A stretch of 41,297 bases of DNA, taken from assembly GCA_024275575.1 (NCBI GenBank), contig JAJRYV010000104.1, forward strand, positions 1-41,297, in the 5' to 3' direction. Source of the DNA: a bacterium (GTDB lineage Bacteria > Zhuqueibacterota > Zhuqueibacteria > Zhuqueibacterales > Geothermadaptataceae). How positions within the stretch are numbered: the stretch's first letter is position 1; the number at the start of each line of letters is the position of its first letter. This document shows, piece by piece, positions 26,330-40,755 of the stretch. The notes beneath the pieces are model-generated. The model saw only the letters and a program-made list of their open reading frames with translations, was not told the DNA's origin and did no database searches. Made by a program: the position numbers and the translations under genes.

Positions 26330-26839
26330 ATGAAAAAGAGAGGAAATGGCCTTGCTTCTTTTTACAATCCCTTTCAGAATTCACCAACAAAATTCAACCG
26401 TTTTCTTCACAGAATAAAGCCTTTAGCGCAGTCGGTTGATCCATTATTTGTGGATGCATCGGTTGAAACAGGCGGTGATTATTATTACAAAGTAACAGCT
26501 ACGGATTTTTCCGGCAATGAAACAGACCCATCGGCGGAAGTGAATCTGGCGATCACTGCTGTTTCCGGGAGCAATGAAATCCCGACCGAATACACATTAT
26601 TGCCCCTTCAACCCGGAGACTGCGATCTCCTTCAGCCTGCCGAAAACCGGGCCGTGTTTTTAAAACTCAACCAGGAAGTTATTGAGCAAGCAAAACTGTA
26701 TGCCAAACAGAAAAATGGTCGGCTATACGGCGCCTTTAGTTATTGTCAATGTTTATTACATCCTGCAAAAATTAAAATCAAATCAATACTATTAAGCGAA
26801 GCACCAAAAAATGGATTTTATTATTACACGCAATATTAA
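26330..26839 (+). pseudogene. Remnant of a T9SS-type secreted protein (Fn3-like end plus sorting domain), frameshifted
   Basis: The open frame encodes a fibronectin-III-like segment (VDASVETGGDYYYKVTATDF, then SGNETDPSAEV) followed by EIPTEYTLL, the usual lead-in to a C-terminal sorting domain. The expected continuation is in another frame: bases 26604-26651 read PFNPETAISFSLPKTG, the canonical opening of these domains. After about 26650 similarity resumes in the original frame (AVFLKLNQEV). At least two indels, and loss of the few residues expected before PFNP, therefore broke the gene. The 5' part, signal peptide and catalytic domains are missing. The downstream frame ends with low-similarity sequence. 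It is a decayed relative of secreted proteins from this lineage. Confidence 0.75.
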
Positions 26840-26921: not shown

Positions 26922-28313
26922 TTATTTCTGTTTCCCCTGCATCTTCGCCACGAACTGCGGCATCATCTCGAGAGAAATTTTTTCCGCGGCGGCTTTAAAG
27001 GCGTTGAGTCCCGCTTTGTCAAAGGAATTGAGGTCGAATCCTTTGGCGCCGTTGAGTGAATTTTTATAGACTTCTTCACCGCTGCGCATGTCGGTCGCTG
27101 ACAGGTTGAGATCGACGTAGGAAACCGAGATACCGTGCGAACGCCCGCCCCGCCGTGATTGTGCATCGACTTTGATCATCACTTCGGCTTTGGACAGATT
27201 GTCGGTTAAAGAAAAACCGTTTTGCAGCAGACTGTTTTTGATCGCCGGCTCGATCTGCGGCAAACTGATCTGCCGTCCAAAATTCTGTTCGCTCACTTCG
27301 ATATAGGCCGTCAAACCGCTGACTGCGAGCACGATATTGGCGCTGGGGAACGGCATGTTGAGAATCGTCTGCCGCATGATCTTGCCGACGCTATCCTGCT
27401 GTACAAATGCTCCGGCATCGACTTCAGCTTTGATGAGTTGCAGCTTATCCTGTGCCGTCACCTTAGTGACACGGCAGCGGGCGATACCGCCGGCATCGGA
27501 GCGGCCTTTGGCGATGAGTTGTCCGGCGCCTTTGATAAAAGCAAACTTGAGCGCCAGATGATGCACTGGAATCTGCGAACCGCTGTCGCTATTATATACT
27601 GGCTTGACAATGTACGGTCGGCGGATGGTCTGCCCCATTTTAACCTTTTGTGTCCCGGCCGGAGGTATCAGTTCGAGACGGCTGATCAAATCCTGAATCG
27701 CCAGGGTAATGGTTTCGCGCAGATAGATTTTATCCCCTTTGTAAAGCGTCTCCAGCGGATCGGCGGGATAGGCCTGCAAAGGTTGCAAAGCGCGGCAAAA
27801 GAAAGTGAGGGCGCTGCTGTAATCTCTTTCCGCCATTTTGGTCATCGCAGTGCCATACAAATTTAAAGCAATGCGTTTCGCTTTGTCGATTTTTTTCTGC
27901 TGAATTTCCGCCCACAGGCCTTTGGACAAACGATAATAGGCCCAATAGTAATTTTTATCTTCCCATGTGTCAACCAGTTCATAACCTTCGATGGCTGTTT
28001 TCGTCTGGGCACGCACGATTGATTTTACCTCATCTTCCACCATGCCGGCGCGTTCGCTCACCTGGTTGATAAAATCGCCGGTTATTTTTACCTCAATCTC
28101 CGAAACCAGATCATTGAGCGCCTGACTTTTGGCCGTTGCAATATGATCCTGCCGGCCGGCCTGTTTTTCCACAGCAGCAATACCGATATAAAAGAGCCGC
28201 GATACCGGTCGCTTTTTTACCCAGTCGGGTTTCTTTTTGCCACCAAAACTTGTGCTTGCGCAGCTTAGCAGAGCGATAGTGAAAATGCCGACGATCAATA
28301 GGGATTTTTTCAT
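26922..28313 (-). CDS. LPP20-family lipoprotein, large
   Basis: 463 residues with a lipoprotein signal peptide (MKKSLLIVGIFTIALLSCAS, lipobox LLSC, lipidated Cys18). Mature residues 30-150 resemble the LPP20/FlgP-type fold: PDWVKKRP, FYIGIAAVEKQAG, then a helix with AKSQALNDLVSEIEVKI and the strand NYYWAYYRLSK. The middle has a helical TPR-like stretch (YSSALTFFCRALQPLQ), and the C-terminal third resembles a second envelope domain (NGFSLTDNLSKAEVMIKVDA). It is divergently transcribed from the CsgG-like gene and shares its LPP20 theme with two small lipoproteins in that cluster. Probably anchored in the outer membrane; function unknown. Confidence 0.82.
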   Translation of the reverse strand: MKKSLLIVGIFTIALLSCASTSFGGKKKPDWVKKRPVSRLFYIGIAAVEKQAGRQDHIATAKSQALNDLVSEIEVKITGDFINQVSERAGMVEDEVKSIVRAQTKTAIEGYELVDTWEDKNYYWAYYRLSKGLWAEIQQKKIDKAKRIALNLYGTAMTKMAERDYSSALTFFCRALQPLQAYPADPLETLYKGDKIYLRETITLAIQDLISRLELIPPAGTQKVKMGQTIRRPYIVKPVYNSDSGSQIPVHHLALKFAFIKGAGQLIAKGRSDAGGIARCRVTKVTAQDKLQLIKAEVDAGAFVQQDSVGKIMRQTILNMPFPSANIVLAVSGLTAYIEVSEQNFGRQISLPQIEPAIKNSLLQNGFSLTDNLSKAEVMIKVDAQSRRGGRSHGISVSYVDLNLSATDMRSGEEVYKNSLNGAKGFDLNSFDKAGLNAFKAAAEKISLEMMPQFVAKMQGKQK

Positions 28314-28863
28314 TGCACCCCTCCGTTATTATTTTTGTCAATTGCGTCATTTACTGTAATTAAAGAGCGCTATTTTGACTGAAAATGCAATAAATATTTT
28401 CAAATATGCATACAGATAACAGGGTTTCTGCAGCACTTCCCCCCGGGGACTTACCGCCCATTTAGTTCACAGGCAACAACTCCGGATGAATGGAAAATAA
28501 AATTTATAAATGCTGTTTTCCGGTGGCTATCTCATAACAACATAGTGCCAAGGGCCGAATCAATAAAACTTTTCATAAATGATGACCTCGACACAAGTGC
28601 TATACGATGTAATGCTTCCGCTTTAATTTTCATTATGTAAAAGAGTGTGCACGCCGCTATTAGACCAGATAATTCTTGCTATTTAGAATATTACAGCTAT
28701 TTTTATGTAGTTACGTCGCAGCACCTTAGGAAAGAACATTTTTTTGCTGAATTCATCAATTTTACCAGACTGAAATTTGAATTATAAAATTTTTCTGCGG
28801 TAAAAACAGGAAACGGGTATAAGAGTTTTCTTAATGATCATGTTGGTTTATGTGGAGGAAATT
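28314..28863. other. Divergent intergenic region of the envelope cluster
   Basis: About 550 bp of A/T-rich DNA between the divergent LPP20-like and CsgG-like genes. It should hold promoters for both; a candidate for the rightward one is listed separately. No RNA gene, repeat or ORF worth naming was seen. Confidence 0.4.
28761..28788 (+). promoter_or_regulatory. Candidate promoter for the CsgG-like operon
   Basis: TTTACC (28761-28766) and TATAAA (28783-28788) are spaced by 16 bp, ending 75 bp before the chosen start of the CsgG-like gene. The -10 box is good and the -35 box moderate. Confidence 0.35.
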
Positions 28864-30069
28864 ATGCTTCGTTTGCCTCAGCGCCTGGCGCTGGCATTAT
28901 TAGTCGGTCTATTCTTTTTTTCGATAAATGATTCTCTCATTGCACAAAGCAAGTGGCATCAGTCGTATGCAGCGGGATTAAAAGCGATAAAAAATCAGGA
29001 ATGGCGTACGGCAATTCGCCACTTCTCCGCGGCGCTGGATAAAAAGAATAAAGATAAAGACAAAACCCGGGCTTATGGCGCGGTGTTCATTTCTTATCAT
29101 CCCAACCGGGAAATGGGCATTGCCTATTATCATCTCGGAGACTACGTGCGCGCGAGAGAATATTTACAGCGCGCACAACGGCAGGCACGTTCCCCCCGCG
29201 GCCGCAGTTTTCTCAATAAAGTTCAGAAGATGAACCCCAATTCACGGCCTTTGCCGCCGCCGGTTTATGATCCCCCGCCACAAAAACCCGTCATAGAATA
29301 TCAGCCCGGGACGACATACGAGAAACCGGATTATTCCAGCAAAATATCCCCGCCGGCAAAGCCCGATGCTGCCGAGGAGATCAATGTCGGAGAAAGGCTC
29401 AGCGTCGCTATTTTGCCTTTCGATACAAAAGGTGTTGGTGATGAGTTCGGCGATATCGACATGCTAGATAAACTGACGACGGCTTTCGTCAATTTGAATC
29501 GGTTCAAAGTCGTCGAACGGGCACAACTGGAACGCATCCTTTCCGAACAAAAACTCGGTCTTTCCGGTATTGTCGATGTTTCCACAGCGGTGAAAATCGG
29601 TGCTGCCGTCGGCGTGGAAACCGTCGTCTGCGGCAGTATCGTGCGCTCGCGAAATTCAGTGAGCATCGACGCCCGGCTGGTGGATACCGAATCGGCGGAA
29701 ATCATTTCAGCACAGGATGCTTTTGCGACAAAAATCAGCCTCGTCGCTTTAAGTGAAATGATCCAGAATGTCGCCACAAAAATCAAACGCGATGTGCCGG
29801 TTGTCAGCGGTATCGTGGTGAATCTGCAGAATAACCGACTCACACTCGACCTGGGGAAAAGCAAAGGCGCACAAAAAGGGATGAAATGTTATGTTTTCCG
29901 CGAGGGCGATTCCATCATCCATCCCAAAACAAAAGAAGTCATCGGCAAAGTTTTCGAACAAATTTGTGAAGTACAACTCGTTGAAGTTTTTGACGGTTAT
30001 TCCATTGCCAAAATCACGCAATCAAAGAATGGTGTTCCACAGGTACTCGACCGGGTGATCACAAAATAA
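28864..30069 (+). CDS. CsgG/HfaB-like outer-membrane assembly protein with TPR-like N-terminus
   Basis: 401 residues from ATG 28864, with GGAGG six bases upstream; an earlier ATG at 28834 is unlikely. The signal peptide (about 1-28) ends LIAQ. Residues 30-120 form TPR-like helices (EWRTAIRHFSAALDKKNKDK, HLGDYVRAREYLQRA). A proline-rich linker follows (PLPPPVYDPPPQKP). Residues 170-300 match the CsgG fold: LSVAILPFDTKGV, LVDT, and the typical run VVERAQLERILSEQKLGLSG then GAAVGVETVVCGSI. It lacks a visible lipobox, unlike classic CsgG. In other systems CsgG forms a secretion pore for amyloid subunits or helps assemble surface structures. No curlin-like subunit is encoded nearby. Confidence 0.88.
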   Translation: MLRLPQRLALALLVGLFFFSINDSLIAQSKWHQSYAAGLKAIKNQEWRTAIRHFSAALDKKNKDKDKTRAYGAVFISYHPNREMGIAYYHLGDYVRAREYLQRAQRQARSPRGRSFLNKVQKMNPNSRPLPPPVYDPPPQKPVIEYQPGTTYEKPDYSSKISPPAKPDAAEEINVGERLSVAILPFDTKGVGDEFGDIDMLDKLTTAFVNLNRFKVVERAQLERILSEQKLGLSGIVDVSTAVKIGAAVGVETVVCGSIVRSRNSVSIDARLVDTESAEIISAQDAFATKISLVALSEMIQNVATKIKRDVPVVSGIVVNLQNNRLTLDLGKSKGAQKGMKCYVFREGDSIIHPKTKEVIGKVFEQICEVQLVEVFDGYSIAKITQSKNGVPQVLDRVITK

Positions 30070-30150
30070 AGCTTAATCTAATCCTGTCAGGCTTGCTGAA
30101 AAAAAATGCAAACACTCATATACTTTTCAATCTAAATATCGGAGGAAGGA

Positions 30151-30762
30151 ATGAAATTGAGACAATCGCTCATTCTAATCGCTATTCTATTTTTGTCAAC
30201 AGCGCAAATTTCTGCCCAGGGGAGAAAAAGCCAGTGGGAACTTTTCGGCGGTGCAGCTTTTCCGCTCTCACCACAGGAATTTAAAGACTGGTACAAAGTG
30301 GGCGGTAGTATTCACGGCCAGTATGTCGCATTTCCCTCGCCAACAGTGGGAATCACTTTCGGCATGGCGGTTGAAGGTTTTGCCGTCGATGAGGACGCCT
30401 TCCTCGATGATTTCGGTATCACCAGTTCTGACGCTTCTATTGACGCAGAATTGTCGATAACCGAGCTGGGAATCGGCATCCGGCCATATCTGACCTCTGC
30501 AGAGGCCAGTTCCCAGATATTTCTTTTCGGCATGGGAACTTATAATGTACTCAATGCAAAAGCGACAGTTAAAGACGTTTTTAGCGGGTATTCAAGCACA
30601 AGTGAAGCTGAAGAAAAGGCCTGGGGCCTCGCAGCCGGCGCCGGCATGGAAATTCCGGCCGGAGACCGCTTTAACATTATTCTGCAGGGCCTGGTTCGTT
30701 TCATTTTCACCGAAGAAGAAAACACTAACTTCGTCGGTGTTACAGCCGGTCTCGCTTTTTAA
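30151..30762 (+). CDS. Small outer-membrane beta-barrel-like protein
   Basis: 203 residues starting just after GGAGGAAGG. The signal peptide (about 1-24) ends ISAQG. The mature part shows alternating amphipathic strands: ITFGMAVEGFAV, LSITELGIGIRPYLTS, IFLFGMGTYNVLNAK, WGLAAGAGMEIPAG. It ends GVTAGLAF with a terminal Phe, the pattern recognised by the BAM machinery. It is probably an eight-stranded barrel of the OmpA/OprF-like type. It lies 81 bp after the CsgG-like gene and ends at a strong terminator, so these two genes form their own unit. Function unknown. Confidence 0.8.
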   Translation: MKLRQSLILIAILFLSTAQISAQGRKSQWELFGGAAFPLSPQEFKDWYKVGGSIHGQYVAFPSPTVGITFGMAVEGFAVDEDAFLDDFGITSSDASIDAELSITELGIGIRPYLTSAEASSQIFLFGMGTYNVLNAKATVKDVFSGYSSTSEAEEKAWGLAAGAGMEIPAGDRFNIILQGLVRFIFTEEENTNFVGVTAGLAF

Positions 30763-30793
30763 TTCATAATTCGTATAGCTTTTAACAAGTTTG

Positions 30794-30832
30794 TTTTCCC
30801 GGGCTCCGGGCCCGGGAAAATTTTGTTTTTTT
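30794..30832 (+). terminator. Strong intrinsic terminator
   Basis: TTTTCCCGGGC and GCCCGGGAAAA form a perfect 11-bp stem around a 5-base loop, followed by TTTTGTTTTTTT. It lies 31 bp after the barrel gene and separates it from the next gene. Confidence 0.9.
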
Positions 30833-30874
30833 CTTCCATGTCGGCCATTTCCGGAAACTAAAATGGGGCGCCAT

Positions 30875-32341
30875 ATGAAATTAATCAAGCTATTAACAGG
30901 AAAATTTCTACTCGGTATTTTTGCTATTTTATGCATGCAAACCGCTGTCGATGCACAGGAAAAATTTGATAACTGGCTGAAAAAAGAACAGCAGAAACTG
31001 CAGGATTACAAAGACGAGCGCGATCGGCAATTCGGTCGCTTTCTCGAGCGCGAATGGCGTCAGATGCAACTGATGCGCGGTATCAAAATCGACAAAACCC
31101 CCAAACCAGTCACCACACCGGTTGCTGAGAAAAAACAACCGGAACCTACCCCTGCAAAAACACCGCCGCCCATCAAAGTCATCGAAAGCAAACCACCTGC
31201 GCCGGTCATCGAGCCCAAACCTGTTTTGCCTGATATTCCCGATCGTGTGCGCACTGTAAAATTTCACTATTTTAACACCCCCGTCGCGTTTCCTCATCCG
31301 GAAAAATTTAAACTCAACAAGCGTGGGAGATACGACAAACAGGATATCGCCAGCTTCTGGCAGACGATGAGCAAAAGCGATTATGAACCTTATGTGACGA
31401 CGGCAAAACAATACAAAGATCGTCTTGCGCTCAATGACTGGGCCTACTGCGTTTTTTTGAAGAAACTGGCAGGGCAGATTTTCCCCCGCTCACAGGCGCA
31501 ACAAAAGCTTTTCATCTGGTTTATTCTTATCAAGTCCGGTTATGACGCCAGGGTTGGTTACAGCAACGAGATCCATATTCTTTTGCCCTCGGTGGGCACC
31601 ATTTTTTCCGTACCCTATTTCACCATCGAAAACAGGCGTTATTATGTCGTGCCGTTCGATGAAATCCCACAACGACCCATGGCGCTCACCACTTACGACG
31701 GCCGCTACCCCGGCGCTGATAAAGCAATCGACCTGCGCCTGAACAGCTTGCCCAAACTGCAATTTTCCGACAGGATCAGGAAACTAAAATTTGAATATGG
31801 CGGCCAGGCCTGGGCGCTCAATATACATTTTAACGATAATCTTATCGATTTTCTGCGTTATTACCCACAGACAGAGCTCGAAATTTATTTCAATGCACAG
31901 GCATCTTTAAGCGTACAACAAGCAATGCTGCAAAACCTGCGGCCGGTGGTTCAGGGCAAATCTGAAACTGAAGCGGTGAATATCCTGCTGCGATTCGTAC
32001 AAACAGCTTTTGCTTACAAAACGGATCAGGATCAATTTGACCGGGAAAAATATTTCTTCCCCATCGAAACGGTCAATTATCCTTTTTCTGATTGTGAAGA
32101 CCGGGCGATTTTATTTGCATTCCTCGTCCGAAATCTGTTAAAATTACAGGTTGTCGCGCTGGATTATCCCGGACATGTAGCGACAGCCGTGCATTTCACG
32201 GAAAAAGCCGATGGCGCCTATGTTGTCTATGGCGGGAAAAAATATACCATTTGCGACCCCACCTATGTCAATGCGTTGCTTGGCCGGACATTGCCGAAAT
32301 TAAAAAATGTTCAACCCAAAATTTTGAAAATCAATTCTTAG
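30875..32341 (+). CDS. Exported transglutaminase-like cysteine protein
   Basis: 488 residues from ATG 30875, where a signal peptide begins (MKLIKLLTGKFLLGIFAILC, cleavage near VDAQ); longer readings from 30863 or 30791 run into the terminator. After a charged coiled-coil start (WLKKEQQKLQDYKDERDRQF) comes a Pro/Lys-rich linker (about 75-120), then a domain of unknown type. The C-terminal transglutaminase-like domain has a full candidate triad: Cys407 in SDCEDRA, His434 in PGHVATAV and Asp461 in ICDPTY. It may cross-link, cleave or modify surface proteins in the periplasm. The same fold accompanies other envelope assembly systems. It is followed by two small lipoproteins. Confidence 0.85.
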   Translation: MKLIKLLTGKFLLGIFAILCMQTAVDAQEKFDNWLKKEQQKLQDYKDERDRQFGRFLEREWRQMQLMRGIKIDKTPKPVTTPVAEKKQPEPTPAKTPPPIKVIESKPPAPVIEPKPVLPDIPDRVRTVKFHYFNTPVAFPHPEKFKLNKRGRYDKQDIASFWQTMSKSDYEPYVTTAKQYKDRLALNDWAYCVFLKKLAGQIFPRSQAQQKLFIWFILIKSGYDARVGYSNEIHILLPSVGTIFSVPYFTIENRRYYVVPFDEIPQRPMALTTYDGRYPGADKAIDLRLNSLPKLQFSDRIRKLKFEYGGQAWALNIHFNDNLIDFLRYYPQTELEIYFNAQASLSVQQAMLQNLRPVVQGKSETEAVNILLRFVQTAFAYKTDQDQFDREKYFFPIETVNYPFSDCEDRAILFAFLVRNLLKLQVVALDYPGHVATAVHFTEKADGAYVVYGGKKYTICDPTYVNALLGRTLPKLKNVQPKILKINS

Positions 32342-32385
32342 ATGAATACAATCCGTTATCCTATAACTTAGCTTTGGAGAAAATT

Positions 32386-32955
32386 ATGCGTCGTTTTTAC
32401 TCATTCGTTCTTATCGCTATCGTTGCGTCTTTCATGATCGGTTGCGGTGGCCCGAAAGCCATGACCGATGTCGGTGGTGAAGTGCCGGACTGGTTTCTGG
32501 AATCAAAATCAGACCCCAATTATCTTTTGGCAACCAACACGGCCGTCTCCCGCGATATGCAAATGGCCATCGACAAAGCCACGACCGGTGCCCGTGCCGA
32601 AATCGGCCGCCAGGCAGAAGTGAAGATTTCCGGCCTGCAAAAACGCTTCGACGAAGAAGTTGGTGTGAATGATGATGCTGAATTACTGCAGATGTTTACC
32701 CAGGCCAGCAAAACAGTTGTTTCAACCTCTCTCAGCGGCAGTCGCATCGCTAAAAAATCCATCAAAAAAGATGGCCAGTTCTGGCGCGCTTATGTATTGG
32801 TTGAGTACCCCATCGGCGCAGCAAACCAAGCTTTGATGGAACAGCTCAAAAACAACAAACGACTGTACACCCGTTTTCGCGCTTCGGAAACTTTCAAAGA
32901 GCTGGAAAACGAAGTGAAAAACTTTGAAAACTGGAAAAAAGACCAGTCCAATTAA
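32386..32955 (+). CDS. Small LPP20-like lipoprotein
   Basis: 189 residues from ATG 32386, with GGAG upstream; a reading from 32251 overlaps the previous gene and hides the signal. The lipoprotein signal peptide ends FMIGCGG, with lipidation at Cys. The mature protein has the LPP20 pattern seen in its neighbours: VPDWFLES, YLLATNTAVSRDMQMAIDKA, a helix GARAEIGRQAEVKISGLQKR, then FWRAYVLVEYPIGAANQAL. The C-terminal 25 residues are a charged helix. It lies 44 bp after the transglutaminase-like gene, so they probably share a transcript. Confidence 0.87.
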   Translation: MRRFYSFVLIAIVASFMIGCGGPKAMTDVGGEVPDWFLESKSDPNYLLATNTAVSRDMQMAIDKATTGARAEIGRQAEVKISGLQKRFDEEVGVNDDAELLQMFTQASKTVVSTSLSGSRIAKKSIKKDGQFWRAYVLVEYPIGAANQALMEQLKNNKRLYTRFRASETFKELENEVKNFENWKKDQSN

Positions 32956-33018
32956 CCTGCTTCCGGGGTCATTGATGCAAACCCGGGGTTTATAATCACA
33001 AAGGTTTTGGGAATCACA

Positions 33019-33807
33019 ATGTCTTTAAAATTTGAGATAAAAACCCCGGGCGTGCCGGATAAAACACCGTTTCCAGCCAGTTTCATCGGCCTGATTTTAA
33101 GCGCCATTCTGTTTTTTTCAGGTTGCTCATCGGTCGCACAGATCTATCCTGAATGGTTTTTAAACCCGGTAAAACTCGAAGTTCCCCATGCAGTTACGGG
33201 TTATGCGGAACCGGCGTTTTATGCAGATTCCGCCATAACCCAGGCTTTTTACAACGCCTGTGAAAATTTTGCCAAAGAGACCACCTGTGAATACAGCGGC
33301 GGCCAGTTTTATTGGGCCACGGAGATCGGCGTCTACTGGATCGGCAACGATGTACGGGAAACGTTCGACTCCAGCGCGACTGAAACAGCAAAATCACTGC
33401 TGGCGCCGGCAGATACCTTTATTACCGATAACTTGGTCATGGTTCTGGCGACCTCCGAAATACCCGCTGATGCCCCATCGCTATTTGCACTTCATAATAC
33501 CAAAAAACAATCCCCGCCCGGCTGGATTAAAGAACTGCCGCAAAAGACAGATTTTATTTATGCTACAGGTATGGCGCCACTTTATTTTCATGAAAAAAGC
33601 AGTTGGCTGCAAGCCGAACAGCGGGCGCGACGCAATCTCGCGCGAACGATTTTTTTATCCGTGGGCGCAGTCGGGAAATCCGCTGCCGAGGGCCAGGATA
33701 AACGCGTTGAAGAAATGGGGCTGACGAGCGTCAATTCGCAAGTGGTCGCCCGCTGGTTCGATGCGAAAGATAAGGTTTGCCATGTACTGGTGAAGATGGG
33801 GAAGTAA
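33019..33807 (+). CDS. LPP20-like lipoprotein, degenerate double form
   Basis: 262 residues from ATG 33019 (a TTG 12 bp earlier is possible; no clear ribosome-binding site). It has a long N-terminal region, then a hydrophobic segment with a lipobox (LILSAILFFSGCSS). PEWFLNPV and AVTGYAEPAF open a first LPP20-like unit, and GWIKELPQ with FIYATGMAPL opens a second, followed by the helix AEQRARRNLARTIFLSVGAV. It is therefore probably two LPP20-like domains in tandem. It is the last gene before the CRISPR-Cas operon; there is no clear terminator after it. Likely outer-membrane anchored; function unknown. Confidence 0.8.
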   Translation: MSLKFEIKTPGVPDKTPFPASFIGLILSAILFFSGCSSVAQIYPEWFLNPVKLEVPHAVTGYAEPAFYADSAITQAFYNACENFAKETTCEYSGGQFYWATEIGVYWIGNDVRETFDSSATETAKSLLAPADTFITDNLVMVLATSEIPADAPSLFALHNTKKQSPPGWIKELPQKTDFIYATGMAPLYFHEKSSWLQAEQRARRNLARTIFLSVGAVGKSAAEGQDKRVEEMGLTSVNSQVVARWFDAKDKVCHVLVKMGK

Positions 33808-34086: not shown

Positions 34087-35316
34087 GTGAACTTATTCCC
34101 TGACCACCACAAATGCGATCATCTGTTTCTGCTAGTGGGCGAAAACCCGCTGCCGCTCTACGTCGCCGCATTGTTGCTGATGGATGACGGCGGTACAATT
34201 TATCTGCTGCACTCCGATGGCGCGAACAAGACGCTCAGTACCAAGCCGTTTGCAGACTTGCTGGTGCGATCACTCAGTGTCGAGCGTCCTGACACAGAAT
34301 TTATTTATTATGGCTTGAATGAAGGCAACAGTCTGCGTATCAGAGCCGAGATGAAAACAATCCTGTCCGAGTTGAATCTGTCTCGCATGGATAGAATCGG
34401 CCTCAATTACACCGGCGGCACCAAGCCCATGGCCATCCACAGCCATGACGTGCTGGCCGAACACTTCCCGAATGCCGTTTTCAGTTACCTCGACGCCCAC
34501 AGGCTGGCGATGCAATTCGAAGGCGAAAGCAATCCGATCGATGTGGCGCGCGCACGCGAGATCAGCCTGAAAGAGCTGGCGCGATTGCATGGATACCGTG
34601 TCGATAAAATCAACCAAACACCGCGCCACGAAAAGTTTGCAAGAGCCTTGGCGGAAGTCCATAATACCGACGGCGGAATAAGGCAATGGCAGAAATGGTA
34701 TACTTCTCTGTCCAACTCGGGTGGAGCTCATCCGCAACTCCCCGACATCAAAGATTACCCTGCTCTGCGACCAATCATCACGGCATTCAACCAGGTCGGA
34801 AATGGGGAGATCGCGACTGAAAAAATCGCACAAGAGCTCGACTTCAAAAAAATCACGAGCGCAAGCAAATGGTTCATCAGTGAATGGCTCGAGGATTTGG
34901 CGTTAGCCGCCATCATTGAAAATGCGCAGGAATTCAACATCGAACATTATGCAAGCAGTCTGGAACCAATACCGCAAAGAGCGCCACAGGGAACGAAGCC
35001 GGCTAAATTCGAGCTCGATGCCGTTGCCATGCTCGGCTATCAATTGTTTGTGTTTTCTTGCATTGTCAGCCGTCCGGGAAAAGGTGAAGGTAGCGAGGTC
35101 AAAAAGCATCTCATGGAAGCCCTGGTGCGCGCTAGGCAGTTGGGTGGAGATGAAGCACGCGCTGCTGTGGTAGGCACCAGCAAGTTTCCTGAAAAAATAC
35201 AAGCTGAAGTTGAGAGAGATTGGCAAATCCGGGGAAAGGTAAGAGTGTTCGGGCGTGACGATCTTCTCAATCTGCCTGATGCTTTTCGCCAGTGGTTTGC
35301 GCAATCGAATCGATAA
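34087..35316 (+). CDS. CARF-DUF1887 effector of type III CRISPR (Can2/Card1-like)
   Basis: 409 residues with a GTG start; an in-frame ATG at 34060 is followed by a stop. The N-terminal 170 residues are a CARF domain, the sensor of cyclic oligoadenylate made by Cas10; NYTGGTK at 107-113 is its ligand-binding motif. A middle helical region leads to a C-terminal DUF1887 (PD-(D/E)xK-like) nuclease domain starting ELDAVAML (Asp311), with LGGDEARAAVVG near residue 359. Known Can2/Card1 enzymes use D-x(n)-(E/S)xK to cut DNA and RNA on ligand binding. Here the second part reads SCI at 324-326, so the catalytic Lys is not at its usual place. It is first in the operon, 10 bp before cas10. Confidence 0.85.
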   Translation: MNLFPDHHKCDHLFLLVGENPLPLYVAALLLMDDGGTIYLLHSDGANKTLSTKPFADLLVRSLSVERPDTEFIYYGLNEGNSLRIRAEMKTILSELNLSRMDRIGLNYTGGTKPMAIHSHDVLAEHFPNAVFSYLDAHRLAMQFEGESNPIDVARAREISLKELARLHGYRVDKINQTPRHEKFARALAEVHNTDGGIRQWQKWYTSLSNSGGAHPQLPDIKDYPALRPIITAFNQVGNGEIATEKIAQELDFKKITSASKWFISEWLEDLALAAIIENAQEFNIEHYASSLEPIPQRAPQGTKPAKFELDAVAMLGYQLFVFSCIVSRPGKGEGSEVKKHLMEALVRARQLGGDEARAAVVGTSKFPEKIQAEVERDWQIRGKVRVFGRDDLLNLPDAFRQWFAQSNR

Positions 35317-35326
35317 GGAGAATACC

Positions 35327-37012
35327 ATGCCACAATACACACTCGTTTTACTTGAAGTCACGGGCATTCAGGATTACGTTTTCAAGAGCAATAACCTGTA
35401 TCAGAATATCGGCGCCTCGGAGCTTGTGGAAATAGTTACGGATGAATGGCTGGTTGAATCTCTTGTAAACGAATCCCTGCAAAGCAACGTGACCTGGGAT
35501 GAGGATGATGGATTGAAGTATGATTCGAAAAAGCGCCTGCCGGATTCCGAGCTGGACATCGAGCTGGTTTATCGCGGCGGCGGTGTAGCTATGTTTCTCT
35601 TTGTCGAGAAAGAAAAGGCGATGGATTTCATGAAAAGACTCACGCGCAAGACCCTTGAGGAAGCGCCCGGCCTGCAACCCGTGGCCATTTATGAACCATT
35701 CGATTGGGAAAAGGATTCCCTGGCTGAGAAGCACCGAGAGCTTCGCGGCAAGCTCGCTGCCCGCAAGCTCGATCGCAGCCATTCCGCACCATTGGCGGGA
35801 CTCGGCGTGACCGCTAAGTGCGTGTTTACCGGCATGCCGGCAGTGGGATGGGATGACGATCCTGAGCTGGTCGGGCATGATGCTGCCAAGCGCAAAGAAC
35901 ACCTGGAGGGTCCACCGCAACGCATCTCCGCCGAGGTCGCAAAAAAATTAAAACACGCGCACTGCGCCAGGGAGAGACTGGCGAAGATCACTCCTATGGT
36001 CGATGAGCAAGGATTCGAGTTTGCGGCCAATTTCAATGACTTTGGCGAAAAAGGCACCTCGAGCTACATTGCCGTGATTCATGCGGATGGCAATGCCATG
36101 GGCGAGAGATTCAACAAGATCGGCGAAAAATTTCACGAAGCTAAAAAGAACGGTGATTACATTCAAAAATTGCGCGAGTTTTCGCTCTCAATTGAAGACA
36201 ACGCCAAAGAAGCGCTTAAAGAAACGATCAGCTACTTGCTCTATCACTGGCCGGAATATGAGGAAAAAGTCGGCGTTTCTGCCAAACGCAATTCCGGCAA
36301 CAGGAAGCTGCTGCCCTTCCGACCGATCGTGTTCGGCGGCGATGACGTGACGTTTGTAAGCGAAGGCAGACTGGGATTGGTGTTGGCGGCAAAGTACCTG
36401 CAAGCGCTTTCAACGACGAAGCTCAGTGACAATGGAAAACCATTGTACGCGCGCGCTGGCGTTGCAGTGGTCAAATCGCACTATCCCTTCTCTCGCGCCT
36501 ACGATTTGGCAGATAAATTGGCTGCAGAAGCAAAAAAGAAAATCGTCGATCGGACACAAACGAACGAAGAAAATACCTTTATGATGGATTGGCATTTCTC
36601 GACAACTGGCGTCGAAGCTGGATTGCAAGAGATACGAAATCGCGAATATATGAGTGAAAACGGAAAATCGCTCTTGATGCGGCCGGTGCGGGTTGCGGAA
36701 ATCGCCGGAAGAACGACTATCTGGCAAACCTGGCAGATATTTTCCAACCTGGTGAGCGCATTTCAAAACAGCGATGACTGGTCAGGCAGGAGAAACAAGG
36801 TCAAAGCCCTGCGTGATGCGTTGCGACAAGGGCAAGAAGCGGTCAGACTTTTTCTCAGAAATTTTGGCCTTGACAATCTTCCCGAAATTCCCGGATTGGA
36901 AAACATGGCGACAACCGGCTGGCAGGGCGATGACTGCGGCTACTTCGATGCTATCGAAGCGCTCGATTTTGTCATCGCTTTCAACGAAAACAAGAACGGT
37001 GGGAAATCATGA
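35327..37012 (+). CDS. cas10: Cas10 large subunit, type III-D, without HD nuclease domain
   Basis: 561 residues from ATG 35327, with AAGGAG six bases upstream. The protein begins directly with a Cas10 N-terminal segment (LLEVTGIQDYVFKSNNLYQN, then GASELVE), without any HD domain before it. The first palm domain follows near residue 245 (AVIHADGNAMGERF). The catalytic GGDD of the cyclase is intact at 337-340 (PIVFGGDDVTFV). A zinc finger is not evident. By family knowledge the palm makes cyclic oligoadenylates from ATP when target RNA is bound. HD-less Cas10 is a trait of subtype III-D, so single-stranded DNA cutting is not expected from this subunit. Its stop overlaps the cas7 start. Confidence 0.93.
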   Translation: MPQYTLVLLEVTGIQDYVFKSNNLYQNIGASELVEIVTDEWLVESLVNESLQSNVTWDEDDGLKYDSKKRLPDSELDIELVYRGGGVAMFLFVEKEKAMDFMKRLTRKTLEEAPGLQPVAIYEPFDWEKDSLAEKHRELRGKLAARKLDRSHSAPLAGLGVTAKCVFTGMPAVGWDDDPELVGHDAAKRKEHLEGPPQRISAEVAKKLKHAHCARERLAKITPMVDEQGFEFAANFNDFGEKGTSSYIAVIHADGNAMGERFNKIGEKFHEAKKNGDYIQKLREFSLSIEDNAKEALKETISYLLYHWPEYEEKVGVSAKRNSGNRKLLPFRPIVFGGDDVTFVSEGRLGLVLAAKYLQALSTTKLSDNGKPLYARAGVAVVKSHYPFSRAYDLADKLAAEAKKKIVDRTQTNEENTFMMDWHFSTTGVEAGLQEIRNREYMSENGKSLLMRPVRVAEIAGRTTIWQTWQIFSNLVSAFQNSDDWSGRRNKVKALRDALRQGQEAVRLFLRNFGLDNLPEIPGLENMATTGWQGDDCGYFDAIEALDFVIAFNENKNGGKS

Positions 37013-37701
37013 ACACACTTTGGTTGACATTGACGCTACGCAGCGATTCCACTTTCGGCCGCGGCGATGGCGTGGTTGGCGTGGTGGATAGCGAGGTGCA
37101 GCATGATGAATATGGCTTGCCCTATCTGAGCGGCAAAACTCTGAAAGGACTGCTTTGCGCCGAATGCGCCGAGGTACTCTACGCGCTCAAAGAAGCGAAG
37201 TGCGCCGATCTCTCGGACTGGGAAGACAGCGCGCGTTGGCTTTTCGGTGAATCGGGCAATCGAATCGAGAACATCGGCAATATGCACGTTGGCGACGCCC
37301 GGCTGCCGGAAGATTTGCGCCTCACGGTGATGGATGAGGTTCATTTAGAGCACGTGTCGAAACAGCAAATGCTCGATACGCTGACAACGATTCGGCGGCA
37401 AAGCGCCATCGACGAGGCCACCGGCGCGCCGAAAAAGGAAGCGCTGCGCGCCACCCGTGTTATTCTCCGCGAGACTGTTTTCGAAGCCAGGTTGGACTTC
37501 ATGCAGCAGCCGCAACCTCGTGAACTGGCGTTGCTCGCCGCTTGCGTGAAGGTATTTCGTCGCGCCGGAACCGAGCGCCACCGAGGCAGGGGGCGCTTGC
37601 ACGCTGAACTTTACGACAAGTCCCCTTTTGTGCATACCGAAGAAGTCGCAGCAACAACGGACAATTATTATAGTGATTTTCGAGAGGCGGTGCTATCATG
37701 A
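37009..37701 (+). CDS. Cas7-family RAMP protein (Csm3-like)
   Basis: 230 residues, a single RAMP domain. It overlaps both neighbours in ATGA, so it is translationally coupled. The N-terminal strand LWLTLTLRSDSTFGRG leads to VGVVDSEVQHDEYGLPYLSG and KTLKGLL, the usual Csm3 motif pair. Asp27 lies where Csm3 has its RNA-cutting aspartate. Near the end, ERHRGRGRLHAEL is the glycine-rich loop typical of RAMPs. It would bind crRNA along the backbone and cut target RNA. In fused III-D variants this Cas7 is joined to Cas5; here it is separate. It could be annotated as csm3. Confidence 0.9.
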   Translation: MNTLWLTLTLRSDSTFGRGDGVVGVVDSEVQHDEYGLPYLSGKTLKGLLCAECAEVLYALKEAKCADLSDWEDSARWLFGESGNRIENIGNMHVGDARLPEDLRLTVMDEVHLEHVSKQQMLDTLTTIRRQSAIDEATGAPKKEALRATRVILRETVFEARLDFMQQPQPRELALLAACVKVFRRAGTERHRGRGRLHAELYDKSPFVHTEEVAATTDNYYSDFREAVLS

Positions 37702-38357
37702 AAGCATTGACATTTTTACTCAGTCTTCAAGAGCCGGTGCTTGCGACGCAGCCGCATAGCGGCGAAGCCAACAGCAAAACCGGCTTTCCTTTCATCCCCG
37801 GCAGCATGATTCGCGGCGCATTGATTCGCAAGTGCCTTCCTGGCAACCCCGATGCATTGCTCGACGATGCATTCCGGCGCCGGTTTTTCGAAGATGGCGT
37901 TTATTTTCTCCATGCCTATCCTGCTCATCGCAAATCGGGCGCACGCATGTTGCCGCAGCCGTTTTCCTGGTTTGTCGAAAAGGATCAGGTTGATGTTCCG
38001 GCTGATGAAATGGATGCTATCTGCGATTTCGCTTTGAAGGTTAGCGACGATCCGGAGCAACCCAGGGCGCCGAAATACGAATTTTGCCACGTCGAGGATG
38101 GTGTTGTGCATCTTGAAAAGGCCAGTTTCAAAGTGACCGTGCATAATGCCAGCGATGACCGCAACAAGCGCGGCAAGGGCAAAAGCCAGGTGTTTCGCTA
38201 CGAAGCATTAGCTGCGGGACAGGACTTCGCCGGCGCGATCGTGGCGGAAGATGAAGCGATTTTGCGCGATCTAAAGCCGCTTCTCGAACAGGGCACGATG
38301 TTTCTGGGCGGTGCACATACCGGCGGCTATGGCAGAGTACTTGTCTCGAATGTGTAG
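37698..38357 (+). CDS. csx10: Csx10 (Cas5-like), N-terminal part, ending at an in-frame amber codon
   Basis: 219 residues from an ATG overlapping the cas7 stop. It opens LTFLLSLQEPVLATQPHSGE with FPFIPGSMIRGALIRK, the Csx10 N-terminal RAMP signature, and ends with the glycine-rich loop GGAHTGGYGRVLVSNV followed by TAG at 38355-38357. The next ORF continues in the same frame at the very next codon and carries the C-terminal part of Csx10. The TAG therefore splits what looks like one gene. Csx10 is the Cas5-family subunit of III-D complexes, expected to hold the 5' tag of the crRNA next to Cas10. See the companion entry for readthrough versus mutation. Confidence 0.86.
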   Translation: MKALTFLLSLQEPVLATQPHSGEANSKTGFPFIPGSMIRGALIRKCLPGNPDALLDDAFRRRFFEDGVYFLHAYPAHRKSGARMLPQPFSWFVEKDQVDVPADEMDAICDFALKVSDDPEQPRAPKYEFCHVEDGVVHLEKASFKVTVHNASDDRNKRGKGKSQVFRYEALAAGQDFAGAIVAEDEAILRDLKPLLEQGTMFLGGAHTGGYGRVLVSNV

Positions 38358-39269
38358 TTGAAAGCTAATTGGCAGGAGTATTCCGAGGAAGAACCTTACG
38401 TTGATGATGAGACAGAGGAAGAAATCGTCACCGTCACGCTGCTCAGCGACGCCATCGTGCGCGACGAAAACGGAAATATGTTATTGGATACAGCGAAGGC
38501 TCTTGGTATCGAGCGGCCAGTTGGAGATGATATGTATCGAGCTTACGCGAAAACGCGCCTGATCGGCGGCTTCAATCGCAAATGGGGTCTGCCGCTGCCG
38601 CAATGCTGGACCCTGGCTGCAGGCAGTGTTTTGCGCTGTCCGGCAGATAAAGTAGATCGTGAAAAATTGAACGGCTATGTGGAGCACGGCGTCGGCGAGC
38701 GGCGCAACGAGGGCCTCGGACGCATTGCGGTGAACTGGCAAACCTTGCCAAAGCTTGAGCGAACCGAAGCGAAAAAATCCCCCAAAAAACCTGGTATTGT
38801 GCTCTCGGCAAAAAGCAGTGAGATGGCGGAAAACATGGCGAAACGGCTGCTGCGCAATCAGCTCGAAAGCGAGTTGGTCGCGCTTCTCGATGCCGCGAAG
38901 ACACAATTGCAATCTCCACTACCCTCCTCCGCACAGTTCTCCCGCGTGCGCGTCGCTGCCCGCTATGCCCATCTCACCGGCCAAATTGAAATAATATCAA
39001 AACACATGGATTTAATCAAAGAACATGGCGCCAAAGAAGACTGGCAGCACGCCGAATTCGAGGGCGAGTCGTTTTTCGATTGGGTGAAAGAAATGTGCGA
39101 ATTGAGCAGCTTTGAAAAGAAATTTCTGCAAAAGAAAAGTCTGCCGAAGATTGCCGGTAAGACAGCACAAACCGATAATGAATTGCGCACAACGTATCTC
39201 GCGCGCTATATCGATGGCGTCATGAAGCTCGGCGTCAAGCAGAACCAGGCCAATAGAGGAGAGCGATGA
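38358..39269 (+). CDS. csx10: Csx10 C-terminal part with helical (Cas11-like?) tail, after in-frame amber codon
   Basis: 303 residues directly after the TAG, in the same frame as the first part. The first codon is TTG with no Shine-Dalgarno, so independent initiation looks weak. Its first 145 residues hold the second half of Csx10: VTVTLLSDAIVRDENGNMLL, TRLIGGFNRKWGLPLPQC, LAAGSVLRC and GVGERRNEGLGRIAVNW. From about residue 165 to the end the protein is highly helical and charged (MAENMAKRLLRNQLESELVA), resembling a small-subunit (Cas11) type segment; that is inference. It overlaps the double-Cas7 gene by ATGA. Alternatives are a nonsense mutation, programmed readthrough, or a genuinely split subunit. 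No missing or frameshifted residues are visible apart from the stop. Confidence 0.82.
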   Translation: MKANWQEYSEEEPYVDDETEEEIVTVTLLSDAIVRDENGNMLLDTAKALGIERPVGDDMYRAYAKTRLIGGFNRKWGLPLPQCWTLAAGSVLRCPADKVDREKLNGYVEHGVGERRNEGLGRIAVNWQTLPKLERTEAKKSPKKPGIVLSAKSSEMAENMAKRLLRNQLESELVALLDAAKTQLQSPLPSSAQFSRVRVAARYAHLTGQIEIISKHMDLIKEHGAKEDWQHAEFEGESFFDWVKEMCELSSFEKKFLQKKSLPKIAGKTAQTDNELRTTYLARYIDGVMKLGVKQNQANRGER

Positions 39270-40753
39270 TGCAAGCACAATGGCAAAACAGCCGCAAGGT
39301 GTCAGAGCGAATTTTCATCCAGGGCGAGCTGGTTTTGGAGACTCCGGCCAATTTCGGCAACGGCGACACCGATAGCTTGACCGATATTCCGATCCTGTTC
39401 GATACCCTTGATGATAAAAAGCCTCTGCTCTCCGGCACCTCGATTGCCGGCGCGCTGCGCAATTACCTGCGCCAACTCGAAGCCGGATATGGCGCGAAAG
39501 AAGGCCGGGACGGCGCACTTATGGCGGAAAGATTGTTCGGCTATCTGGACGAGGATAAAAAGAACGATCGCACCGACAGCATTTTGAGCTGGCTGATGGT
39601 CGATGATGCCCTGGGCGAATTGCCTGGTGACAAAAATGCCATCGAGCTGCGGGATGGCGTGGCCATCGATCCGAAAACGAGAACAGCGAAACTGGATAAA
39701 AACAAAAAGGGACAAAAATTCGATCTCGAGCTTCTGGCTGCTGGTACGAGGTTTCGGCTGCACTTCGAGTTCTGGCTCAACGAGAACAATCGATCGTACC
39801 TGGAAGCGCTGGCGCTGGCGCTCAAAGGCTTTGAAGAAGGCACTATCGGCCTCGGCCTGCGGAAGAACAGGGGCTATGGCCGGTGCAAGGTGGCCGGCTG
39901 GCAGATTCAGCGCTATCGCATGGACGATAAAAACGGCATCTTGAACTGGCTCTCACATCAGGAGCCGGAACAGGATGTGTTCCAGTCGGATATCATGCGC
40001 CTGCTCGACGTTTCGTCTGATCAGACACACCAGGGCGAGAAATTCGTTTTGGATGCACAATTCAAGCTCGACAGCTCGCTGCTGATTCGCTCCGGCACCG
40101 GCAATCCCGCAGGCACGGATTTCGTGCATCTGCGCTCCCTGCGCATAGATAGCGATGATGACCCGCAGTTTGCAATGAAGCCGGTTCTCTCCGGCACGAG
40201 CCTCGCCGGCGTGATCCGCCATCGCGCCCAACGCATCGCGCTGACCATGATCGAAAACGAAAAAGCCGCAGATGCTCTTGTGAACGGGATGTTCGGTTTC
40301 ACCGATAAGAAAAAATCGCAAGGCAGCCGCGTCGCCATTCGTGAAACCGAAATCAAAAACGGCGTCGACGATCTCATTCAAACCCGCATCAAGATCGACC
40401 GTTTTACCGGCGGCGCTTATCCCAACGCGCTGTTCAGCGAACAGCCGGTATTCGGCAAATCCAAAACCGATACGTGCGTCCACCTGCACCTCGAGCTGCG
40501 CAAGACCCCGGCTGCCAGGTACTTCGAGGCCGAAGTCGGCTTGCTGCTGCTCGTGCTCAAAGATTTGTGGACCGGCGATCTGCCGGTCGGCGGAGAGAGC
40601 AGCGTCGGGCGTGGCAGATTGTTCGGTGTCAATGCCAAAATGTACCTCGGCGACAAAATGTGGGAAATCATTCAAAAGGAAAGCGGGCTCGAATTCAAAG
40701 GCAAGCACGATGACTTACAGAAACGATTTGTCAACGCATTTCTGGAGATATAG
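39266..40753 (+). CDS. Tandem double Cas7 RAMP protein (Cas7-2x-like)
   Basis: 495 residues comprising two Csm3-like units in one chain. Unit 1 (about 10-220) has TDIPILFD, PLLSGTSIAGALRNYLRQ and the glycine-rich GLRKNRGYGRCKV. Unit 2 (about 255-475) has GTDFVHLRS, PVLSGTSLAGVIRHRAQ and GGESSVGRGRLFG. Asp40 and Asp285 are in the positions of the Csm3 RNA-cutting aspartate, so both units may be active. Sequence between units resembles a linker (HQEPEQDVFQSDIMRLLDVS). A GGAG lies a few bases before the start. Together with the single Cas7 the complex would have at least three Cas7 units per copy of each protein. Tandem Cas7 in one chain is known from the fused III-D variant. Confidence 0.9.
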   Translation: MMQAQWQNSRKVSERIFIQGELVLETPANFGNGDTDSLTDIPILFDTLDDKKPLLSGTSIAGALRNYLRQLEAGYGAKEGRDGALMAERLFGYLDEDKKNDRTDSILSWLMVDDALGELPGDKNAIELRDGVAIDPKTRTAKLDKNKKGQKFDLELLAAGTRFRLHFEFWLNENNRSYLEALALALKGFEEGTIGLGLRKNRGYGRCKVAGWQIQRYRMDDKNGILNWLSHQEPEQDVFQSDIMRLLDVSSDQTHQGEKFVLDAQFKLDSSLLIRSGTGNPAGTDFVHLRSLRIDSDDDPQFAMKPVLSGTSLAGVIRHRAQRIALTMIENEKAADALVNGMFGFTDKKKSQGSRVAIRETEIKNGVDDLIQTRIKIDRFTGGAYPNALFSEQPVFGKSKTDTCVHLHLELRKTPAARYFEAEVGLLLLVLKDLWTGDLPVGGESSVGRGRLFGVNAKMYLGDKMWEIIQKESGLEFKGKHDDLQKRFVNAFLEI

Positions 40754-40755
40754 CC

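What the first reader, a model, noticed from the sequence alone, without database searches (positions are those of the whole stretch)
26922..33807. Envelope cluster of CsgG-like, LPP20-like, barrel and transglutaminase-like proteins
Six neighbouring genes all encode exported proteins: three LPP20-type lipoproteins, a CsgG-like protein with TPR and proline-rich parts, a small barrel, and a cysteine protein with a full catalytic triad. CsgG-like proteins with LPP20 partners build surface structures in other bacteria (curli, flagellar outer rings). Here there is no curlin, flagellar or S-layer gene, so the structure served is unknown.
Basis: partly seen in the sequence, partly recalled or inferred. 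Interest (0 to 1): 0.5.

Follow-up and report, generated by a model that had tools for sequence, protein, structure and literature searches.

The report
LapG-like protease envelope gene cassette
In an uncultured bacterium, six neighbouring genes for exported proteins form a real, partly conserved cassette whose enzyme looks like a known surface-releasing protease, but it does not look like a curli or flagellar structure.

Summary
The six genes are real and all six products have an N-terminal export-type signal. The genome is taken to be a Calditrichota from the one named relative found. That sister genome has all six genes in the same order. Of 63 genomes of the class, 9 have the cysteine enzyme, 9 the small LPP20 lipoprotein LppB and 7 LppC; the same 7 have all three. 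Enzyme and LppB lie within about 3.5 kb in 7 of 7. The CsgG-like gene has an outer-membrane-barrel gene next downstream in 22 of 22 loci.

The "surface structure" reading is not supported. The CsgG-like protein lacks two insertions that a full-length CsgG of the same genome has, the module does not track flagella, and no CsgF was found here.

The enzyme core is LapG-like in a modelled fold (Z 9.3), with an invariant Cys-His-Asp triad and LapG's Asp-Cys-Glu motif, but fails the LapG profile cut-off.

Best reading: a periplasmic LapG-like cysteine protease held at the outer membrane by LPP20-type proteins, here coupled to an LpoB/FlgT-like TPR protein and a barrel. In two relatives a caspase replaces the CsgG-like domain. 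Substrate unknown.

The parts
26922..28313 (-). LppA: exported protein with N-terminal LPP20 domain (residues 29-129); lipobox LLSC; divergent from the rest
   Evidence: Pfam LPP20 3e-9, 37.6 bits over cut-off 25.9. Orthologues in the fetched loci of G001 (77%) and G033 (38%); not searched genome-wide. Lipobox not conserved in G033.
28834..30069 (+). CsgG-TPR protein: signal peptide, TPR N-terminus, proline-rich linker, compact CsgG/LpoB-like domain (about residues 186-333), FlgT_C-like tail; likely start at 28864
   Evidence: Pfam CsgG 5.2e-13 but profile positions 42-99 of 210 only, FlgO 1.4e-5, FlgT_C 15.9 bits under cut-off 27. Lacks two CsgG insertions. LpoB Z 7.6 on a low-confidence model.
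30151..30762 (+). Small outer-membrane beta-barrel (203 aa, C-terminal Phe), partner of the CsgG-TPR gene
   Evidence: OMP_b-brl 2.7e-5, under cut-off. Same-kind barrel next downstream of CsgG-TPR in 13 of 22 loci, a FadL-like barrel in the other 9.
30791..32341 (+). LapG-like/transglutaminase-fold cysteine enzyme (likely start 30875): coiled helix, proline-rich stretch, middle region, catalytic core 371-516 with C435, H462, D489 and D434/E436 beside the Cys
   Evidence: Invariant residues. Core fold, LapG Z 9.3 over 112 residues. NCBIfam LapG 16.4 bits, far under cut-off 320. 9 of 82 genomes of the phylum.
32386..32955 (+). LppB: LPP20-type lipoprotein, the only one of the set with a conserved lipobox
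   Evidence: LPP20 22.2 bits, under cut-off 25.9; relative in G008 28.6 bits. Lipobox in 8 of 8. 9 of 63 genomes.
33007..33807 (+). LppC: periplasmic protein with a divergent LPP20-like second half
   Evidence: No Pfam match. hhalign to LppB profile: probability 74%, E 2.7e-5. 7 of 63 genomes, the same 7 that have both enzyme and LppB. Lipobox after the hydrophobic core in 1 of 6.

Best explanation
The conserved core is an envelope proteolysis module made of LppB, LppC and a LapG-like cysteine enzyme. Proposed working: the enzyme is exported to the periplasm and held near the outer membrane by LppB (a lipoprotein) and LppC. It binds calcium through the Asp and Glu beside its catalytic Cys and hydrolyses an envelope or surface protein. 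In this genus the module is joined in one likely operon with a TPR protein bearing an LpoB/FlgT-M-type domain, plus an outer-membrane barrel. The TPR protein is proposed to dock on the barrel and act as adaptor or regulator, not as a secretion pore. Shown computationally: co-conservation, adjacency, triad and Asp-Cys-Glu motif, a LapG-like core in a model, absence of two CsgG insertions. Inferred: export route, complex formation, calcium use, protease rather than cross-linker, and the substrate.
For: (1) Enzyme, LppB and LppC occur together in 7 of 63 genomes (single counts 9, 9, 7), in four taxonomic families. Enzyme and LppB lie within about 3.5 kb in 7 of 7, enzyme and LppC in 6 of 7, and all three in one locus in 5 of 7 (hypergeometric 2e-6 and 7e-8, not corrected for relatedness). 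(2) Triad C435/H462/D489 and D434/E436 invariant in 10 of 10 core rows; in DvhG, a LapG-type protease, D316/E318 beside C317 bind calcium and are needed for activity (passages of PMC13090378). (3) The modelled core (pLDDT 73-78 at 441-490) aligns best with LapG entries, Z 9.3, 9.1 and 8.9 over 112-114 residues, tied with TglA at 9.3 (the first is a chain of a LapD-ortholog complex entry that I take to be LapG). (4) CsgG-TPR lacks two internal insertions (21 and 27 columns) that the full-length CsgG of this genome has; the first falls where that protein aligns with solved E. coli CsgG. (5) 22 of 22 CsgG-TPR loci have a barrel gene next downstream. (6) In G019 and G028 the same TPR N-terminus (33% identity, E 2e-25 and 1e-23), barrel, LppB, LppC and enzyme occur, with a caspase domain in place of the CsgG-like one.
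Against: No sequence-level match to any solved structure (0 hits at E up to 10 with the whole-family and core profiles). NCBIfam LapG score 16.4 against a cut-off of 320. The structure model is poor overall (mean pLDDT 45, two-sequence alignment), and plain Foldseek gave no significant hit (best E 0.08, menin). No giant adhesin gene lies in the cluster. No LapD domain was found in 63 genomes, but the control rang nowhere, so that is inconclusive. The enzyme occurs without LppB in G029 and G039, and LppB without it in G037 and G008 (some on short contigs). In G049 LppB and LppC stand beside two different copies of the enzyme, and in G018 LppC is on another contig, at its end. G033 carries CsgG-TPR, barrel and LppA on a different contig from the trio. 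LppB and LppA profiles do not recognise each other. Barrel, CsgG-TPR and LppA are not needed for the trio.
Confidence: 0.45

Rival explanations
1. A peptidoglycan-synthesis regulator: the LpoB-like domain and LPP20 lipoproteins reach through the wall to activate a synthase, and the cysteine enzyme edits wall-linked protein or peptide.
For: CsgG-TPR domain matches LpoB best in the fold comparison (Z 7.6, 108 residues). In G018 and G049 enzyme and an LppB relative sit in one gene row with an LpoB-family gene (Pfam LpoB E 1e-42 and 3e-42). In the sister genome two FhaA-type FHA genes, a penicillin-binding transpeptidase, a RodA/FtsW and a PP2C gene follow LppC. H. pylori has an LpoB homologue (HP1457) and Lpp20 (HP1456), neighbours by gene number (passages of PMC11394524 and PMC11756786).
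Against: The FHA-type gene is found in 4 of the 7 trio genomes and is near the trio only in G001; in G019 and G028 it is on other contigs, and in G000 on a contig that ends inside it. The CsgG-TPR model has low confidence (mean pLDDT 42). No known wall enzyme lies in the window's operon.
Confidence: 0.25
2. A transamidating (cross-linking) enzyme that stitches outer-membrane or surface proteins together, rather than a protease.
For: Transglutaminase fold. The BTLCP domain is thought able to do either reaction (passage of PMC4241560). S. pyogenes TglA ties with LapG in the fold comparison (Z 9.3).
Against: The Asp-Cys-Glu motif matches the LapG/DvhG calcium site, and the LapG-type enzymes described in the passages read are proteases (PMC13090378).
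Confidence: 0.15
3. An outer-membrane ring or secretion machine of the curli or flagellar FlgO/FlgP/FlgT kind.
For: FlgP, Lpp20 and FlgT share a fold, and FlgP and FlgT form rings (passages of PMC12222027). CsgG-TPR is over the CsgG and FlgO cut-offs and matches FlgT_C weakly.
Against: Two CsgG insertions missing. FlgI in 2 of the 7 trio genomes against 22 of 63 overall. CsgF in 2 of 63 genomes and not in this one. No subunit gene recognised nearby.
Confidence: 0.1
4. Unrelated envelope genes that are neighbours by chance.
For: The trio is patchy (7 of 63 genomes) and LppA was seen in only three of the fetched genomes (not searched genome-wide).
Against: Adjacency in 7 of 7, 6 of 7 and 22 of 22 cases. 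Domain swap with retained partners.
Confidence: 0.03

Closest known systems
LapG / DvhG (bacterial transglutaminase-like cysteine proteases, BTLCP)
   Same: Modelled core fold, Cys-His-Asp order, Asp-Cys-Glu motif, signal peptide.
   Different: About 315 residues between signal peptide and core (coil, proline-rich stretch, middle region). Far below the LapG profile cut-off. Encoded with LPP20-type proteins; no adhesin gene recognised beside it.
HvyA of Caulobacter (BTLCP that blocks capsulation)
   Same: Periplasmic BTLCP-type domain with a Cys-His-Asp triad (passages of PMC4241560).
   Different: HvyA lies in a capsule export locus; here the partners are LPP20, barrel and CsgG/LpoB-type proteins.
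LpoB / FlgT-M / FlgO / GNA1162 fold group
   Same: Short domain and modelled fold of the CsgG-TPR protein.
   Different: Carries a TPR N-terminus and is paired with an outer-membrane barrel gene; no lipobox.
CsgG curli secretion channel
   Same: First part of the CsgG profile (positions 42-99 of 210) matches.
   Different: Lacks two insertions of a full-length CsgG, and a lipobox.
H. pylori HP1454-HP1457 (Lpp20 and an LpoB homologue)
   Same: LPP20-type and LpoB-type proteins encoded close together, as in G018 and G049.
   Different: No transglutaminase-like enzyme or barrel is mentioned in the passages read.

Membership tests
LapG / BTLCP cysteine protease | Transglutaminase-like catalytic core | tested here: met
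   VIA-align: LapG rows 9.3, 9.1, 8.9 over 112-114 residues of 371-516, on a model of low overall confidence; plain Foldseek not significant.
LapG / BTLCP cysteine protease | Cys-His-Asp triad | tested here: met
   C435, H462, D489 invariant in 9 of 9 full rows and 10 of 10 core rows.
LapG / BTLCP cysteine protease | Asp and Glu flanking the Cys (calcium site, DvhG D316/E318 in PMC13090378) | tested here: met
   D434 and E436 invariant in 10 of 10; calcium binding itself not testable.
LapG / BTLCP cysteine protease | Score over the family's curated cut-off | tested here: not met
   NCBIfam LapG 16.4 bits against 320; no Pfam family over cut-off for the four enzymes tested.
LapG / BTLCP cysteine protease | LapD receptor in the genome | tested here: inconclusive
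   0 of 63 genomes, but the control genomes did not ring either.
CsgG/HfaB secretion channel | Two membrane-inserted hairpin insertions | tested here: not met
   Six CsgG-TPR rows lack two blocks of 21 and 27 columns present in L001 of the same genome. That these are the pore hairpins is recalled; only the first is mapped to solved CsgG.
CsgG/HfaB secretion channel | Lipoprotein | tested here: not met
   No lipobox in 8 of 8 sequences scanned.
CsgG/HfaB secretion channel | CsgF partner | tested here: not met
   CsgF in G001 and G036 only of 63 genomes, not in G000; E. coli control rang.
LpoB/FlgO/FlgT-M domain | Compact fold without pore insertions | tested here: inconclusive
   LpoB Z 7.6, GNA1162 7.4, FlgT 5.8 on a model with mean pLDDT 42, all under Z 8; Pfam FlgO over its cut-off (25.4 vs 22.6), LpoB under it (17.5 vs 22.3).
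LPP20 lipoprotein (PF02169) | Profile over cut-off, LppA | tested here: met
   37.6 vs 25.9 bits.
LPP20 lipoprotein (PF02169) | Profile over cut-off, LppB | tested here: not met
   22.2 vs 25.9 bits; the G008 relative reaches 28.6, the G018 relative 19.9.
LPP20 lipoprotein (PF02169) | Profile over cut-off, LppC | tested here: not met
   No match for four LppC proteins; weak hhalign link to LppB.
Flagellar FlgO/FlgP/FlgT ring | Occurs with flagella | tested here: not met
   FlgI in 2 of the 7 genomes with the complete trio, 22 of 63 in the class.
Peptidoglycan synthase activator | Binds and activates a PBP | not testable with these tools
   Needs biochemistry.

The most novel reading that the evidence does not exclude
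A modular periplasmic device in Calditrichota: one outer-membrane platform (TPR protein + barrel + LPP20-type proteins) carries a LapG-like protease and, by domain exchange, either an LpoB/FlgT-like regulator or a second cysteine protease of the caspase family, in two genomes beside a Ser/Thr kinase with an FGE-sulfatase-like tail. It would be a trans-envelope proteolytic signalling system with swappable outputs.
Probability: 0.2. Interest if true: 0.7.

Novelty: new variant of a known kind. Interest (0 to 1): 0.45.

Why it matters
LapG-type proteases known from the papers seen control adhesin release, and the related HvyA controls capsule. A LapG-like enzyme tied by conservation to LPP20-type proteins, and in some relatives to LpoB-type or caspase-type partners, would be a different way to place a protease at the outer membrane, in a phylum with few cultured members (recalled). 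It also gives a concrete role to test for LPP20-type proteins outside flagella.

Tried and rejected
Curli or flagellar structure: tested by FlgI and CsgF over 63 genomes and by the missing insertions; not supported. Defence system: none of the six proteins matches PADLOC at E up to 0.01; but the caspase and the kinase of the G019 version do match PADLOC models (caspase 8e-13; kinase models down to 5e-49), so a defence link of that version is not excluded. The type III CRISPR genes next door look like a separate island, and CRISPR genes do not follow the cluster in the sister genome. LapD test: nothing rang, controls included, so no conclusion. Peptidoglycan link through the FHA/PBP/RodA genes: near the trio in one genome only; the matching gene in this genome lies at the end of another contig, so linkage cannot be decided. 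Solved-structure sequence searches for the enzyme, LppA, LppB and LppC gave nothing convincing; CsgG-TPR gave TPR proteins and weak LpoB (E 0.26). Plain Foldseek on the enzyme model gave no significant match; the LapG result comes from the VIA second look. The CsgG-TPR model is poor; CsgG was absent from its match list, which proves nothing. A tree of the enzyme splits the two copies from taxonomic family f6 with full support, so transfer or old paralogy is likely; three of six inner branches are weak. Literature: no paper holds both 'LPP20' and 'CsgG'; the listings showed none describing this combination; only open-licence PMC papers are covered. Rows dropped before counts: G010's contig-start fragment of CsgG-TPR and G014's second piece are not in the 22; L029-L036 and weaker rows are other CsgG- or TPR-domain matches and were not counted. 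In one search the window (barrel) and L022 (FadL-like barrel) are the query sources themselves, and in L025 the barrel is cut by the contig end.

Papers: passages only of PMC4359373, PMC4241560, PMC11756786, PMC13090378, PMC12222027, PMC12096838 and PMC11394524; all others only in search listings.
Full report
WHAT IS THERE. The window is contig C82 (41,297 bases) of a 4.96 Mb genome in 144 contigs. The one named relative that the scan returned is Calditrichaeota bacterium CLD2 14 (locus L069); its contig has the same length as genome G001's matching contig, so I treat the two as one and take the window to be Calditrichota. I call them LppA (26922-28313, minus), CsgG-TPR (28834-30069), barrel (30151-30762), enzyme (30791-32341), LppB (ORF 32251-32955, likely start 32386) and LppC (33007-33807). 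The five plus-strand genes lie end to end with gaps of 44-112 bases if the later starts are used, so one operon is likely; LppA is divergent. All six have a hydrophobic N-terminal core.

CONSERVATION. In G001 all six genes occur in the same order. Its flank beyond LppA holds a gene of which the window keeps only a fragment, and its downstream flank differs. In the class (63 genomes) LppB is found in 9, the enzyme in 9 and LppC in 7. The seven genomes with LppC (G000, G001, G018, G019, G028, G033, G049) are exactly those with both other proteins. Enzyme and LppB are within about 3.5 kb in 7 of 7. Enzyme and LppC are within that distance in 6 of 7; in G018 LppC lies at the end of another contig. 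All three stand in one locus in 5 of 7, because in G049 LppB and LppC are beside two different enzyme copies. Exceptions: enzyme without LppB in G029 and G039, LppB without enzyme in G037 and G008. In the phylum the enzyme is in 9 of 82 genomes. Hypergeometric values are 2e-6 (LppB with enzyme) and 7e-8 (LppC with enzyme), not corrected for relatedness.

THE CsgG-TPR/BARREL PAIR. Of 60 genomes searched, 22 hold the strong CsgG-TPR match, the window's included. In 22 of 22 of these loci a barrel gene follows next downstream on the same strand: the small barrel in 13, a FadL-like barrel in 9, one of these cut by a contig end. Of two FadL-like barrels tested, one is over Pfam's FadL cut-off and one under it. 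This pair also occurs without the trio.

NOT A CsgG PORE. Three CsgG-TPR proteins tested match only positions about 40-100 of the 210-position CsgG profile, whereas another CsgG of the same genome (L001) matches 8-207. Aligned together, six CsgG-TPR rows lack two internal blocks of 21 and 27 columns that L001 has. The first block falls where L001 aligns with solved E. coli CsgG. That these blocks carry the pore hairpins is recalled knowledge. A low-confidence model (mean pLDDT 42) resembles LpoB (Z 7.6), GNA1162 (7.4) and FlgT (5.8).

THE ENZYME. Cys435, His462 and Asp489 are invariant in 9 of 9 aligned rows, and so are Asp434 and Glu436 beside the Cys in 10 of 10 core rows. The modelled core has pLDDT 73-78 at 441-490 although the whole model is poor (mean 45). 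In the VIA second look LapG rows score Z 9.3, 9.1 and 8.9, tied with S. pyogenes TglA at 9.3; the next row is 7.7. Plain Foldseek found nothing significant. Family profiles do not accept it: NCBIfam LapG 16.4 bits against 320, Pfam DUF553 14.2 against 20.5. In DvhG the matching Asp and Glu are the calcium site and are needed for activity (passages of PMC13090378). So it works like LapG in anatomy but is not filed as a LapG.

NEIGHBOURS IN RELATIVES. In G019 and G028 the row is: DUF4384-type protein, TPR-caspase, barrel, LppB, LppC, Ser/Thr kinase with an FGE-sulfatase tail, enzyme. Pfam confirms caspase and kinase in both and DUF4384 in G019; in G028 that gene was found by similarity, 74% identity. 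The TPR part is 33% identical to that of CsgG-TPR. In G008 and G037 an LppB relative also lies by a caspase gene. In G018 and G049 the enzyme and an LppB relative (31-33% identity) follow an LpoB-family protein, a further lipoprotein-like protein (TPR models under cut-off) and an LPP20 protein. In G033 LppB, LppC and the enzyme are on one contig, LppB next to an M48-type peptidase gene, and CsgG-TPR, barrel and LppA on another. The output domain thus changes while LppB and, mostly, the enzyme stay.

LINKS TO FLAGELLA AND CURLI. FlgI is in 22 of 63 genomes and in 2 of the 7 trio genomes. This genome has a FlgI match (reported with one in-frame TAA), so the organism may have flagella, but the module does not follow them. 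CsgF is in 2 of 63, one of them the sister genome, and not found here.

READING. The best-supported explanation is a LapG-like periplasmic protease module tied to LPP20-type proteins and here joined to an LpoB/FlgT-like TPR adaptor and a barrel (confidence 0.45). A peptidoglycan-regulator reading is the main rival (0.25). Substrate, calcium use and complex formation are inferred.

Noticed in passing
26330-26839: A 169-aa frame whose residues 30-95 match residues 928-993 of a 1,075-aa protein at the same side of LppA in the sister genome (67% identity): the window seems to hold only a remnant of that gene.
   Followed up: partly
34087-41297: Type III CRISPR genes (CARF-PDDEXK nuclease of the Csx1 kind, Cas10) begin about 280 bases after LppC, in sequence of higher G+C; they are not next to the cluster in the sister genome. 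Only the first two of these genes were tested.
   Followed up: partly
L071 (G000 contig C115 end) and L069:14943-20516: In the sister genome LppC is followed by two FhaA-type FHA genes, a penicillin-binding transpeptidase, a RodA/FtsW and a PP2C gene (Pfam); in this genome the matching contig ends inside the first FHA gene, so the CRISPR island may have been inserted between them.
   Followed up: partly
L060:7906-10284 and L061:7464-9719: Ser/Thr kinase with a C-terminal FGE-sulfatase-like domain encoded between LppC and the enzyme.
   Followed up: no
L076:6363-8273: Caspase-domain protein with an N-terminal half that looks like an outer-membrane barrel by eye; Pfam names only the caspase part over cut-off.
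   Followed up: no
L001:1411-2337: This genome also has a CsgG-family protein matching nearly the full profile (136 bits), on another contig; no CsgF was found in the genome.
   Followed up: partly
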